From Calothrix sp. PCC 7716 (lineage in GTDB: Bacteria > Cyanobacteriota > Cyanobacteriia > Cyanobacteriales > Nostocaceae): a stretch of DNA of 64,000 nucleotides. The DNA lies in contig NZ_AP025018.1 of assembly GCF_019977735.1 (NCBI RefSeq), positions 5,274,580 through 5,338,579 of the forward strand, written 5' to 3'. A program made the position numbers and the translations under genes. The notes beneath the pieces are model-generated. The model ran no database searches. It saw only the letters and a list, made by a program, of their open reading frames with translations, and had not been told where the DNA came from. Below are positions 18,773 through 23,353 of this stretch, in pieces (the first letter of the stretch is position 1; each line of letters opens with the position of its first letter).

Positions 18773-19108
18773 CTATGCGCGTATAATAATTACAGAACGA
18801 CCTTTGGAGGTTGTTGCCGTTTTAGTTTCTAAACGGTCTATAAAAGCGGGTGCATTTGTGCGTCGGTCGAACACAAACAACCAACCATAATCTGCCTTTA
18901 TCCGCTCTAAATAAGCTTCTAATTGTTCTAAACCTTTTGCTTCTGGGTCTTTTATTTTATCTCGCCATACTTTTATCTCTATTCCTAGAGTTACACTTTT
19001 ATAACTCAAGCATAAATCCATGCGACCAGAACCAATAGCATACTCTCGCTCTAAAGTACCACCACCATTTACTACACGATGTAAAAATGACATTAGTACT
19101 ATATGGGG
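18773..19108 (-). pseudogene. C-terminal fragment of an AAA-ATPase-like/PD-(D/E)XK nuclease protein
   Basis: The fragment matches the end of the large 'AAA-ATPase-like plus nuclease' proteins: LMSFLHRVVNGGGTLEREYA, then SGRMDLCL and GIEIKVWRD with the catalytic E-x-K, followed by QLEAYLERI. The frame is open upstream of the ATG at 19093 right up to the terminal repeat of the ISKra4-like element at 19109. This shows that the gene was cut by that insertion. The N-terminal ATPase half is not on the other side of the element, so it has been lost or moved. Confidence 0.75.
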
Positions 19109-19539
19109 GGGAGCAATGCGATTTTGTTAAATCAGCCGACACTAAATGCGATTACTATTTTTCATACTTAGAAAGAAAGCTATATTTATTACAATTATTT
19201 TTCAATTTGCACACCAAGTTTATCCTTTTGATGAGAACAAAAAGATTGACAGCAAATAGTTTTAAATTTGTTTAAGTAAATTAACTACATACGTAGCTAA
19301 ATTTTAATGTATATTTTCTCACTCAAACCGCTTTCAAAATATACATTAGGTATAAAATTTATCCACCATATTAAGGATTGATAAAAGAGGTGAAAATTGA
19401 ATTGCAGAAAGAATCCCAATTTCCAGCTATCCATTGGCAACGGAGATGTAACATAATTTCTGCATTATTTTTTAACCAAAATTTACTATTTCCTTTAATT
19501 CTTAAATTTACAACCTGTCGAATTAAACTTTCAATCGCT

Positions 19540-19594
19540 CCCTTCGGGTTCGCCAGTTTGGCGGGACGGAAGCCGACACCGCCAAGTGGACTCA
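19540..19594 (-). repeat. 55-bp hairpin element, copy 1 (splits the SGAxE motif)
   Basis: On the minus strand the insert runs from TGAGTCCACT to CCCGAAGGG and sits between AGTGG and AGCGATTGA. Deleting it restores GSGAIES. Near-complementary arms around GGCGG/CCGCC form a hairpin with the loop TGTCGGCTTCCGTCC. Confidence 0.85.
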
Positions 19595-19945
19595 CCACTA
19601 CCGATTGGTAGTTTTTTCTCTATAATTTCAGGATAATTTAAACGACCTTCACGGTACGCGCGTAGTAAATAATCTCTCTGTTTTATCATAGTATTATATC
19701 GCTCTCCAGAAGCTTCATTAATAAATTTATTCATCTTTTTTATTAGCGGCAATGCACCACGTTTTTTTAAAGTTTTTCGTGCGTTTTTAAACCAATCTTT
19801 TCGCTCATTTTCTTTTGTGAAAGCCGCATCTGCAAATAGTTGTAAGTGTTCTGTAACGTGATAAAAATCATATAATTGATAAGTTTCATTTGGACATCCT
19901 AAACGCTCTAAAAGCGGAGGAATATGTAACCATATCCACTCAGCG

Positions 19946-20000
19946 CCCTTCGGGTTCGCCAGTTTGGCGGGACGGAAGCCGACACCGCCAACTGGTCTCA
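19946..20000 (-). repeat. 55-bp hairpin element, copy 2 (splits the second DG motif)
   Basis: Same length and orientation as copy 1, inserted between GACGG and CGCTGAG on the minus strand. Deleting it restores ADGAEW. The arms CCAGTTGGCGG and CCGCCAAACTGG pair apart from one bulged base. Confidence 0.85.
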
Positions 20001-20264
20001 CCGTCCGCAATTAATAAAACTTGCTTTGCTTGGTTAATTCCTAAACTGACTAAATACATTTCCAAAATTTCTAAAAATGGTTTATGTCCATGATATGTAC
20101 CATCATTAGTAATAGGAATTTCATTGTTTTTTATTTTTTTACCTTGCTCATCAACAACATAAATTGTTAATAATTTTGGCTCTACCCATATTCCATCAAA
20201 GCCATATCGGTTTGTTTTTTCATTTTTTTCATCTGATTTGTTAATTCTTATTTTACTTCTGCCT

Positions 20265-20319
20265 CCCTTCGGGTTCGCCAGTTCAGCGGGACGGAAGCCG
20301 ACACCGCTGACTGGACTCA
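20265..20319 (-). repeat. 55-bp hairpin element, copy 3 (splits the first DG motif)
   Basis: Inserted between GACGG and AGGCAGA on the minus strand; deleting it restores VDGGRS. Its arms read CCAGTCAGCGG and CCGCTGAACTGG. They differ from the other copies on both sides in a way that keeps pairing. Confidence 0.85.
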
Positions 20320-21412
20320 CCGTCTACAGCAATTACAACACGTTGTCCTTGAAAAGTATTTCCAGGTTTTAAATTATTATTTTTTATACTCTCTATTTTT
20401 GATTGTCGCAAGTTGATTCCTATTTGACCAAATTTATATGCAAGTCGTTCAATTCTTTTTTGGCTTATGTTGATGCCCCAATCTATTAAAGTTGTACATG
20501 CTGCTTCAAATGAACTAGCAATTGCACCACCTCCACGCAATTATTGACCAGGCTAAAGGAGTTACACCTTCTTCCATTCCCAACCATTTTAAAAATGGGC
20601 TGAAGCCCTGATGCTCAAATTTATTTTTTTCTTTTTTCCCATTATTCAATTTTTCACTTTTATCATTCCTTATTGTTACATAAGGCAATAATAAAGTTAT
20701 TAAAACATTTCCAACTGTTAATATTTGTCTTCGACGACAACCATGTTTTCTTGTTTTTAACTCCCAATACCCCTGAGTTTGAATCATTGCTGTATCTAAA
20801 GCTTCCTGAGATTGAGACAAATTATGTAATAATATTGCGACACATTGCCCAGCTAGTATCAGCGCTATGTCTCTAATTTCTTGTTCACGAGCTTTAAAAA
20901 TCCGACCGTCCCATTCTTTAACATTATTCAATTCTAAAAGTTTCGTAACCGAATCTTTAAAATCTTGCAAGGATTTGCTTAAATCTAAAGTTGGATATAT
21001 ATATTTTGTCACGGTAGGCGCATCCGAGTTATTAAACTATTGGTACTCGGTAATCCTACCTTTTTTTATGAACACTTTTAATAAAGCATGGTCGCTTCCA
21101 TCATATACGCTTACAATTATCGCAAATAGTGCGCTTATAATTTTTGATTCTAACGGCGCCCGTGCGCTCGGCATGGCTGCGCTATGCCATCACTTTTTAG
21201 TGTGTTTTTAGTATTTATATATTGTTTTGTATATTCATTCAATTTAGTTTATTTGCTTATTAGTAATGTAGTAATATAGTTAAATAATTTATATTGAATG
21301 TTTTTTAAGTATTAATACTGCTAATAGTGTATTAGATAAAAGTTTGTACTGAGAAGTTTTTTTTGTATGCACCTACTTTTAAGCTAATTTAACAAAATCG
21401 CATTGCTCCCTG

Positions 21413-21910
21413 CTGGCTCTAAGAAAGAATGATTTATACTTAGTTGGTTCTGGTTCTAACAAAGACAACTTAGTATTTCCTCAAAACGAAAAGCTTTTAA
21501 GCTACATAGACGAAAGCCTTAACTTTAATAGTCCAGGTCTTCTAACGGGGCTAAAGGAACTGAGGGAGGGGAAACTTGTAAAAAAAGCAAATGATCGTTT
21601 AGTTATTGGTAATGGTACACGCTTATTTGCTAACTTAATTAGCGAAGCCGCGCGATTTGGCGTTATCCGGGAAAACTTTGCTCGGCGCCTAGCCACACCT
21701 AAAGGAGATATAGATGTTAACAAGTTTCTTCCGTTAGTTAAGGATTGGGAAAAATTGTATAAGGCAGTTAACAAAGTAAATGGAACTGAACCAGTCGATA
21801 AAAAGCTCGTTGGTCTTAGTGATGAATTGGTGGAATATGGTGGTGATGGAGTCAAGTACAACAAATATTGCCAGTGTAAAAATGGCATGTTGGGCATAAA
21901 TTTACCTTAA
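21413..21910 (+). pseudogene. C-terminal gene fragment truncated by the ISKra4-like element
   Basis: A frame of 165 codons with no usable start begins right at the insertion-sequence end and stops at 21910. It reads KNDLYLVGSGSNKDNLVFPQ and continues through FANLISEAARFGVIRENFAR to an end near KNGMLGINLP. The steady codon use shows it was coding. I recognise no family. Its N-terminus was removed by the element at its left, and an IS4-like element begins 21 bases after its stop. Confidence 0.6.
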
Positions 21911-21931: not shown

Positions 21932-23353
21932 CTAACTCATATCTTGCACCTGGAAATTTGGATGTCAATTCCTTGACTCAGTAGCAAGTCTCTCATCTGT
22001 TCGATATGTTGTAAAAGAAGTAACACTACTAAATGGGGAAATATAGTTTGGAATGCAATTTCTGCTGCTTCACCCCAGTCAGGTAAGTCGCCGTTGGCGC
22101 CCGATGTCGATAAATAAGCCCAATGTGCCAAAACATAAGATATCAGGGACAACACTAACCAGCGATAAACCCCTAGGAGGGTTCCTTGTCCAAAGCGATG
22201 TAATCCAAAACGGTGTTTTGCGGTTTTAAACCAACCCTCTATCTGCCATCTTCGTTTACCCCACCAAGAAATAGTGCTTGCTTTGAGGGCTTTGGTTGAA
22301 ATAACAAATCGTTTCTCATACTTACCGTCATGACGCTTAAAATAATACCAGGATATATAGACAGGAAATTTTAAACCCTGAAGGTAAAGTTGCTGTCCTC
22401 GTTTGTGTAATTGGGCGACACTGCGCCCATCAACTAACTTACGGGTACAAGCTATGCCAGCAATTATGTGAAATTTTTTCTCTCGAACACCGTGTATAAA
22501 TTGGATACTGCCGAAGCCTGTATCTACTAAAACCATTACCTCTTTAAAGTGCTTGGTTAATTTTTTAGGTAAAGATTTAACCATTTTTAATCCTAATCTT
22601 GCTGGGGAAGTGGCGCCTTTCCCCCTCCAAACACGGAAGCTCCAGGGTATTCGCCACCGACCAACAACTAAGTACACCACAACCAAATGCATACCTCGTT
22701 TTCCGTGGTAAACGCTGATTAAGCTTTCAAGCCCCTTAAATTTTCCGGCTTTCTCCAAAGTTGTTAGGTCAATAATAACTTGTAAAAATGGTTGGCGCCC
22801 CAACGAACGCTCAGATAAAATCTCCTTAATAATACGGTTACGGGCAGTGCGAATCACACCTCTAGTTGACCAATTATAAACGTTGAGAAATCTGCTTAAG
22901 GCGCTAGCTGACTTACTTTTACTGTGTTGAGGTAGAGGATAACCTTGTGCCTCTAAAAACATCCCAAACATCGCTTCGAGATTTTCTTGTTGGTAGGTAG
23001 AAGGCATCAATGACAGCAAAGTGTAAACTAGATTTTGGGCGTGGGCAAGAATTGAAACCATATTTCTTGCTTATTCATATAAACTTCAACGCCCTTTTTC
23101 TCATGTTTTGGCGCCACAATGCAAATTAAATTCATTATCACTTACTGCTAACAGTATATTTGTATGTATTTTTCAATTCAATGGCGCCATTATCAAATGA
23201 AAATTCAGCTTTAAAATACGTATTAATATGGTGCCTCGTAGTCAAAAATATGTTCTTTCATACTTAGGTAATAAAATTATCTTTTGGTTATAGTTTTACC
23301 ATCTCTAATTGGCTTTATACGGGTTTTTACGTTAGGTGCAAGATATGAGCTAA
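21932..23353 (-). mobile_element. IS4/IS701-like insertion sequence
   Basis: Ends are a 20-base inverted repeat, with TCATATCTTGCACCT at the left (21932-21951) and its reverse complement at the right (23334-23353); 18 of 20 bases match. The element is about 1.42 kb with one intact transposase gene, whose stop codon lies within the left repeat. Confidence 0.8.
21937..23061 (-). CDS. DDE transposase, IS4/IS701-like
   Basis: A 374-residue transposase. DDE residues are suggested by VIIDLTTLEKAGKFKGLESL, VMVLVDTGFGSIQFIHG, and the Y-REK-like region ISWWGKRRWQIEGWFKTAKH, where the last acid follows W-Q-I. Hydrophobic C-terminal helices follow. The gene appears intact, so the element may be active. 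About 270 bases separate the start from the right terminal repeat, which is long for this group and may hold the promoter. Confidence 0.85.
   Translation of the reverse strand: MVSILAHAQNLVYTLLSLMPSTYQQENLEAMFGMFLEAQGYPLPQHSKSKSASALSRFLNVYNWSTRGVIRTARNRIIKEILSERSLGRQPFLQVIIDLTTLEKAGKFKGLESLISVYHGKRGMHLVVVYLVVGRWRIPWSFRVWRGKGATSPARLGLKMVKSLPKKLTKHFKEVMVLVDTGFGSIQFIHGVREKKFHIIAGIACTRKLVDGRSVAQLHKRGQQLYLQGLKFPVYISWYYFKRHDGKYEKRFVISTKALKASTISWWGKRRWQIEGWFKTAKHRFGLHRFGQGTLLGVYRWLVLSLISYVLAHWAYLSTSGANGDLPDWGEAAEIAFQTIFPHLVVLLLLQHIEQMRDLLLSQGIDIQISRCKI

What the first reader, a model, noticed from the sequence alone, without database searches (positions are those of the whole stretch)
19540..20319. 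An exactly 55-bp hairpin element sits beside all three catalytic motifs of one transposase
Three copies (19540-19594, 19946-20000, 20265-20319), same length and same orientation, split the DG, DG and SGAxE motifs of an ISKra4-like transposase. Each is placed straight after GG on the coding strand, and removing 55 bases restores VDGGR, ADGAEW and GSGAIES without error. Hitting all three active-site motifs by chance in a gene of about 480 codons is unlikely, so either the element has a target preference matching these motifs or its insertion there was favoured by selection (for example, it tames the transposon). Small dispersed repeats are known in cyanobacteria, but I do not know of this arrangement.
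Basis: partly seen in the sequence, partly recalled or inferred. Interest (0 to 1): 0.88.

Follow-up and report, generated by a model that had tools for sequence, protein, structure and literature searches.

The report
Tiny hairpin inserts in transposase active sites
A cyanobacterial jumping gene is interrupted at all three of its active-site motifs by copies of a tiny hairpin repeat that inserts right after a short T/C-G-G target, and related cyanobacteria show the same habit in several kinds of transposase gene, more often than the target alone seems to predict.

Summary
In detail: three 55-nt copies, same orientation, each directly after GG; removing each restores VDGGR, ADGAEW and GSGAIES. 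The element is a small mobile hairpin, probably of the kind known as cyanobacterial small dispersed repeats. In 64 non-redundant sites outside recognised transposases it follows YGG in 46, and a target profile from those sites ranks the three sites 2nd, 7th and 9th of 2936 positions in the transposase. Target choice thus explains most of the pattern. A residue remains: in other genomes 9 of 11 frame-breaking insertions into DDE transposases (ISKra4-like, IS630, IS4, IS701) lie within about five codons of a catalytic residue, against 2.1-2.3 expected (post hoc window). The ADG motif is hit in three organisms by three element variants. The inserts are probably not removed from the message: in ORFs of 350 aa or more outside DDE transposases, 8 of 8 have lengths divisible by three and read through as peptide. 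The interrupted IS exists as two identical copies with different flanks, so it was copied after being broken, probably in trans. Splicing or ribosome bypassing is disfavoured. What is new is the recurrent hit on transposase active sites, not the kind of element.

The parts
19109..21410 (-). Insertion sequence, ISKra4-like, 2302 bp, interrupted; a second 100% identical copy lies at G000:C1:884609-886910 with different flanks
19109..19131 (+). terminal inverted repeat GGGAGCAATGCGATTTTGTTAAA
21388..21410 (-). terminal inverted repeat, other end
20515..21012 (-). N-terminal part of the transposase, 165-aa open frame
20527..20538 (-). extra frame break in the transposase (length differs by one base from PCC 7103)
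20265..20319 (-). 55-nt hairpin element in motif VDG|GR (first catalytic Asp, motif recalled)
19946..20000 (-). 55-nt hairpin element in motif ADG|AEW (second catalytic Asp, motif recalled)
19540..19594 (-). 55-nt hairpin element in motif GSG|AIES (before the catalytic Glu, motif recalled)
21937..23061 (-). Uninterrupted IS4-like transposase ORF next door (type inferred from its likeness to L194, no HMM run on it); relatives of it carry the element at RRW|QIE or HRFG|QGT in other genomes

Best explanation
The three copies are separate insertions of a small mobile hairpin repeat (outer frame TGAG[N]CCA..., ...TGGCGAACCCGAAGGG, variable middle, mostly 53-60 nt). It inserts precisely after YGG, with no target duplication that can be told apart from its own terminal G residues. 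Codons of transposase active sites (Asp-Gly = GAYGGN, Ser-Gly, Ser-Trp and Arg-Trp = NNNTGG) supply such targets, so the inserts fall on catalytic motifs of several transposase families. A 55/56-nt insert breaks the reading frame and inactivates the transposase; 54/57/60-nt forms are kept in living genes as translated peptides. Shown: precision, target, recurrence, in-frame open reading through inserts in long ORFs, and two identical interrupted IS copies. Inferred: mobility by a hairpin (single-strand DNA or RNA) intermediate, loss of transposase function, and movement of the broken IS in trans by a transposase since lost. Not explained: why catalytic sites are hit two to four times more often than the target profile predicts.
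For: Target: 53 of 64 non-redundant sites outside recognised transposases end in GG, 46 in YGG; the own sites rank 2, 7, 9 of 2936. Hits at the same motifs with different element variants: ADG in own, G361 (56 nt, other middle) and Nostoc sp. UHCC 0302; VDG in own and G356. Nested self-insertion after GG (L010, L011). Changes on both sides keep the stem at pairs 9-39, 11-36, 12-35, 13-34 and 20-28 in most of 18 sequences. In one search, 8 of 8 joined ORFs of 350 aa or more outside DDE transposases have inserts divisible by three, against 33 of 106 sites overall.
Against: The profile gives only about 0.19 per insertion for the three own sites together and 7e-4 for exactly this triple, so it does not explain everything. 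No transposase that could move the broken IS in trans was found: a search with the C-terminal 334 aa met only the two interrupted copies at E<=0.001. No mobilising enzyme for the repeat itself was looked for. The length rule rests on a threshold set afterwards; below it some ORFs carry lengths not divisible by three (L098, L150, L167, L172, L193), with the junction near an ORF end or in nested compounds. One of the 18 stems, the own GSG copy, breaks pair 9-39.
Confidence: 0.7

Rival explanations
1. Homing-like specialisation: some element variants recognise more than YGG (a longer DNA context conserved at transposase active sites) and repeatedly colonise those sites, hitch-hiking on insertion sequences.
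For: 9 of 11 frame-breaking transposase insertions in other genomes lie near catalytic residues, expected 2.1-2.3 at a 15-nt window. One 56-nt variant and near-identical forms of it were found at W|LNxxE of IS630 (L230, L233, L234, L289; a second L289 copy carries it with a further insert) and RW|QIE of IS4-like genes (L194, L262). The two UHCC 0302 IS630 copies are only 90% identical to each other.
Against: The window around catalytic residues was chosen after seeing the distances; with a 9-nt window it is 6 of 11 (P 0.0017), and with one row per IS type 4 of 8 against 1.3 (P 0.016). IS701 ERW|WEI and IS4-like HRFG|QGT are not catalytic. Copies also sit in many spacers and tandem arrays. Relatives of the 56-nt variant lie in other contexts too: of 10 elements in 9 plasmid regions read, three (L296, L298, L300) are not in a recognised transposase, and one search lists many places without an annotated transposase.
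Confidence: 0.2
2. The element is removed at RNA level or skipped by the ribosome (intron-like, or bypassing as in T4 gene 60), so the interrupted transposase still works.
For: Three precise inserts of 55 nt in one gene; two identical interrupted copies with different flanks show recent movement; own versus PCC 7103 dN/dS is about 0.15. All 8 frame-breaking inserts with a recognised host were sense and inside a Gly codon.
Against: In ORFs of 350 aa or more outside DDE transposases only lengths divisible by three are found (8 of 8), and in 2 of the 5 proteins scanned (L148, L149) a Pfam domain match runs across the translated insert. Other cases lie after a Trp codon in phase 0, giving an immediate TGA (L190, L194, L230, L233, L234, L262). 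This gene has a further frame break. Other interrupted hosts are truncated or frameshifted (L075, L097, L151, L173). No Rfam match.
Confidence: 0.05
3. Plain chance plus expendability: insertions occur after GG anywhere, survive in IS genes because these are expendable, and the catalytic placement is a coincidence noticed afterwards.
For: Frame-breaking inserts whose host was recognised are in transposases and one pseudogene.
Against: Same motifs hit in several organisms with different element variants; P from 0.016 to 3e-6 depending on window, profile and collapsing.
Confidence: 0.05

Closest known systems
Small dispersed repeats (SDR) of heterocystous cyanobacteria (Elhai et al. 2008, Genome Res. 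18:1484; paper not held, content recalled)
   Same: Short dispersed hairpin repeats of Nostocales, precise insertion, nesting in copies of themselves, compensatory stem changes
   Different: Recalled SDR length is 21-27 nt against 53-60 here; identity with SDR1-8 could not be tested; insertion in transposase catalytic motifs is not something I recall from it
Rickettsia palindromic elements (RPE); seen only in a passage of PMC3733652
   Same: Palindromic repeats kept in frame inside functional protein genes
   Different: Different organisms; here frame-breaking forms also recur in transposases
REP/REPIN elements with RAYT transposases (PMC3116915, abstract and passages)
   Same: Non-autonomous hairpin repeats; that paper names SDR among repeats whose origin its approach might explain
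   Different: No link to a RAYT was tested; insertion after YGG
T4 gene 60 bypass and mitochondrial byp elements (recalled; of PMC11194080 only the listing and start of abstract were seen)
   Same: Hairpin gap of about 50 nt between Gly codons
   Different: Removal not supported; Trp-codon cases and in-frame retention argue against it

Membership tests
Small dispersed repeats (SDR) | short dispersed hairpin repeat of Nostocales and relatives | tested here: met
   49 of 75 genomes of the family match the 3' end with up to 3 mismatches; the plasmid records listed are all cyanobacterial, a few of them unicellular and only partly covered
Small dispersed repeats (SDR) | compensatory changes in the stem | tested here: met
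   18 sequences, own script, no shuffle control
Small dispersed repeats (SDR) | nested insertion into own copies | tested here: met
   L010, L011
Small dispersed repeats (SDR) | unit length 21-27 nt (recalled) | tested here: not met
   53-60 nt in 104 of 106 sites; may be a composite of smaller units, not shown
Small dispersed repeats (SDR) | sequence identity with one of SDR1-8 | not testable with these tools
   paper not held
ISKra4 family transposase (host gene) | match to family model | tested here: inconclusive
   NF033572 E 2e-29, 103 bits, cut-off 205; no Pfam match at E<=0.001
Programmed ribosome bypass / byp | matched take-off and landing codons, length free of frame (recalled) | tested here: not met
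   Gly-Gly here, but Trp phase-0 cases elsewhere and lengths divisible by three in long ORFs
Self-splicing intron | known intron fold / removal from RNA | tested here: inconclusive
   no Rfam match at E<=1 in 19000-21600; no RNA data
Rickettsia-type palindromic element | in-frame insert in living genes | tested here: met
   open frames through the insert, domain matches in 4 of 5 proteins scanned; translation itself not shown
Rickettsia-type palindromic element | sequence relation to the Rickettsia elements | not tested
   no comparison made

The most novel reading that the evidence does not exclude
A family of hairpin elements of about 55 nt behaves as a homing-like parasite of transposase genes. 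It recognises DNA that encodes DDE active-site motifs in several unrelated transposase families, re-colonises the same codon in different species, and uses the insertion sequences it disables as vehicles.
Probability: 0.2. Interest if true: 0.82.

Novelty: new variant of a known kind. Interest (0 to 1): 0.62.

Why it matters
The in-frame forms in long proteins would be a cyanobacterial counterpart of the Rickettsia palindromic elements.

Tried and rejected
Bypass or splicing: considered seriously after (first cases in Gly codons, sense), then disfavoured by Trp phase-0 cases and in-frame retention. dN/dS (up to three HSPs per locus, which can overlap) and polarised changes (own branch 5 nonsynonymous, 5 synonymous; PCC 7103 branch 8 and 6) do not decide whether the gene still works. 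Order-wide pattern searches of the three junctions (388 genomes each) gave, besides the two own copies, only G361:C383 (site 2) and G356:C94 (site 1) as true junctions; L102, L103 and L109 do not look like junctions, L105 is undecided. Of the 16 identical matches in G094 only one place was read (L192 and L287 are the same place); it is not in a recognised transposase. (20 genomes, 2 mismatches, list cut) was too permissive: it drew in an abundant related repeat beginning GGAG and was not used for counts. Phages: no match.

Rows dropped before counts: 68 three-prime ends without a recognised five-prime end; 106 sites reduced to 78 by identical flanks (64 outside recognised transposases, 14 transposase or pseudogene; the split was made by eye, so unrecognised transposases may be among the 64). 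In the 9-of-11 test L065, L097 and L151 were entered by hand with borrowed expectations, L244, L194 and L075 are partial genes, and the catalytic residues were assigned from recalled motifs. Left out of it: L158 (same ERW|WEI site as L190, not catalytic), L166 (transposase not identified by any search), L173 (not a transposase), the in-frame TnpB-like cases L136, L139 and L188, and the later plasmid cases (by eye: L289 twice near, L294 and L295 seemingly near, L290, L291 and L292 far). Family names rest for L190 (IS701), L230 and L234 (IS630), L244 (IS630 model, below cut-off) and L194 (IS4 model, far below cut-off); L233, L262, L151 and L158 are named by likeness. Of 12 plasmid regions opened, L293, L297 and L299 gave no recognised 3' end.

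Full report
Observation. Each is 55 nt, in the coding orientation of a minus-strand ISKra4-like transposase, directly after GACGG, GACGG and AGTGG, and its removal joins VDG-GR, ADG-AEW and GSG-AIES. The nearest named relative, Calothrix sp. PCC 7103 (L062, 92% in its best segment), has no insert at these points. The rest of the gene is not clean: a fourth break lies near 20527-20538. PCC 7103 has two frame breaks of its own.

The insertion sequence. The IS is 2302 bp (19109-21410) with 23-bp inverted repeats. A second copy at G000:C1:884609-886910 is identical over the whole 2302 bp, carries the same three inserts, and has different flanks. So the IS was copied after it had acquired all inserts (gene conversion between two older copies is an alternative). 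A search of the genome with the C-terminal 334 aa met nothing but these two copies at E<=0.001, so a trans-acting source must have been lost or be unrecognised. A 149-bp piece with similar inverted repeats sits at G000:C1:4942474-4942622.

The element. Its 3' end occurs 24 times in this 12.4-Mb genome with at most one mismatch, six of these in the two IS copies. In 75 genomes of the family, 49 have at least one match to a longer pattern with up to three mismatches. From fetched loci I collected 106 distinct insertions with both ends recognised; lengths are 55 (32), 56 (31), 57 (19), 54 (11), 58 (7), 60 (3) and single cases of 47, 53 and 71. The outer frame is constant, the middle varies. In 18 sequences of the 55-nt class the stem is kept through changes on both sides at five pairs, with a few exceptions, among them the own GSG copy at pair 9-39. 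Copies inserted after GG inside another copy are seen (L010, L011).

Target. In 64 non-redundant sites outside recognised transposases, 53 end in GG and 46 in YGG. In the 14 non-redundant transposase or pseudogene sites all end in YGG and 10 in GAYGG. A profile built from the 64 alone ranks the own three sites 2, 7 and 9 of 2936 positions on both strands of the transposase gene (2, 8 and 13 of 4238 for the whole IS, where the IS bounds were set one base off). The profile gives 0.19 per insertion for any of the three and 7e-4 for exactly this triple. This is the main reason why catalytic motifs are hit: their Gly and Trp codons after Asp, Ser or Arg make good targets.

Recurrence. A scan of 67 loci of transposase relatives (L031-L096, some overlapping and partly chosen for split matches, plus L097) found both ends of the element only in own, G356, G361 and Nostoc sp. 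UHCC 0302, each time in VDG, ADG or GSG (G356 VDG, G361 ADG, UHCC 0302 ADG). The elements at one motif differ between organisms, the G361 one in its whole middle part, so these are probably separate insertions. In other families, frame-breaking inserts lie at W|LNxxE of IS630 (L230, L233, L234), WDG|APYH of an IS630-like gene (L244), RRW|QIE of IS4-like genes (L194, L262), HRFG|QGT of an IS4-like gene (L151) and ERW|WEI of IS701 (L190, and L158 with a differently starting element). A plasmid of Nostoc sp. UHCC 0302 adds W|LNQVE of IS630 twice. Of the 10 elements in 9 plasmid regions listed, three (L296, L298, L300) are not in a recognised transposase, and three (L290, L291, L292) are in transposase genes far from catalytic motifs.

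Size of the excess. For 11 insertions in other genomes, 9 are within 15 nt of a catalytic codon, expected 2.1 (P 3e-6), or 2.3 with other transposase sites added to the profile but the same family left out (P 5e-6). With one row per IS type and site the counts are 6 of 8 (P 4e-4 and 5e-4). A 9-nt window gives 6 of 11 (P 0.0017) and 4 of 8 (P 0.016); 21 nt gives 9 of 11 (5.8e-5) and 6 of 8 (0.0026); 30 nt gives 9 of 11 (8.7e-4) and 6 of 8 (0.014). The 15-nt window was chosen after I had seen the distances, and the number of independent events is small.

What it does to genes. In one search, ten hosts have joined ORFs of 350 aa or more. Eight are not DDE transposases (L132, L133, L138, L140, L142, L148, L149, L188), and all eight inserts are multiples of three, against 33 of 106 overall; six are in sense and two in antisense orientation. 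Five of the eight were scanned with Pfam: a PTS HPr/PEP-utilising protein, an FAD oxidoreductase, an AMP-binding/condensation protein and an IS605-type transposase were recognised, one had no match; the domain match runs across the insert in two. Read through, the inserts give peptides such as GEPVAVDGFPGISKLANPKG. The two DDE transposases among the ten (L075, L190) carry 56 nt. Below the 350-aa line, which I set afterwards, some ORFs have lengths not divisible by three: L150, L172 and L193 (junction within 40 codons of the ORF start), L098 (35 codons from the end) and L167; L098, L167 and L172 are nested compounds. If the element were removed from RNA or skipped in translation, its length in living genes should not matter. 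Several hosts of frame-breaking forms show other damage: L151 and L173 (a GMC oxidoreductase) are frameshifted, L075 lacks its end, L097 is a fragment. Others, such as L190, L230 and L262, show a long joined ORF. Insertions after Trp codons put TGA in frame at once. I therefore take the interrupted transposase to be dead.

Literature. Searches listed no title or abstract start on such elements in transposase motifs; the library lacks most subscription journals, and the key SDR paper is not held, so absence from print is not established. Passages seen: PMC4390886 (SDR5 inserts between nucleotides 3 and 4 of HIP1), PMC3116915 (SDR mentioned beside REPINs), PMC3733652 (Rickettsia elements in frame within genes; cyanobacterial REPs).

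Verdict. A real arrangement and, most likely, a known kind of element. The residual excess at catalytic motifs is the open point.

Noticed in passing
L132, L140, L142, L148, L149, L188 (loci from own and related genomes): 54/57/60-nt forms of the element lie in frame inside long open reading frames (PTS protein, FAD oxidoreductase, AMP-binding protein, IS605-type transposase, others), in both orientations, like Rickettsia palindromic elements.
   Followed up: partly
L063 (G058), L080 (G339), L064 (G327): ISKra4-like relatives have a frame break exactly at the catalytic Glu motif (GSGAF TTT TGA..., CTT TGA...), the first two alike in different genomes.
   Followed up: no
G000:C1:4942474-4942622 (L113): 149-bp MITE-like piece with the inverted repeats of the interrupted IS (one end exact, the other with 3 mismatches).
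   Followed up: no
L066, L067 (G187): Two ISKra4-like copies share an insertion of about 100 nt with a hairpin and T run near the C-terminus of the transposase.
   Followed up: no
L289 (Nostoc sp. UHCC 0302 plasmid NZ_CP151102.1, 106500-114500): Two 90% identical IS630 copies about 4 kb apart both carry the 56-nt element at W|LNQVE; one element is 24 nt longer.
   Followed up: partly
G094, 16 places (one read: L192 = L287): A related repeat with the same 22-nt end is present 16 times, on many contigs of one genome; whether a larger multi-copy unit carries it was not checked.
   Followed up: no
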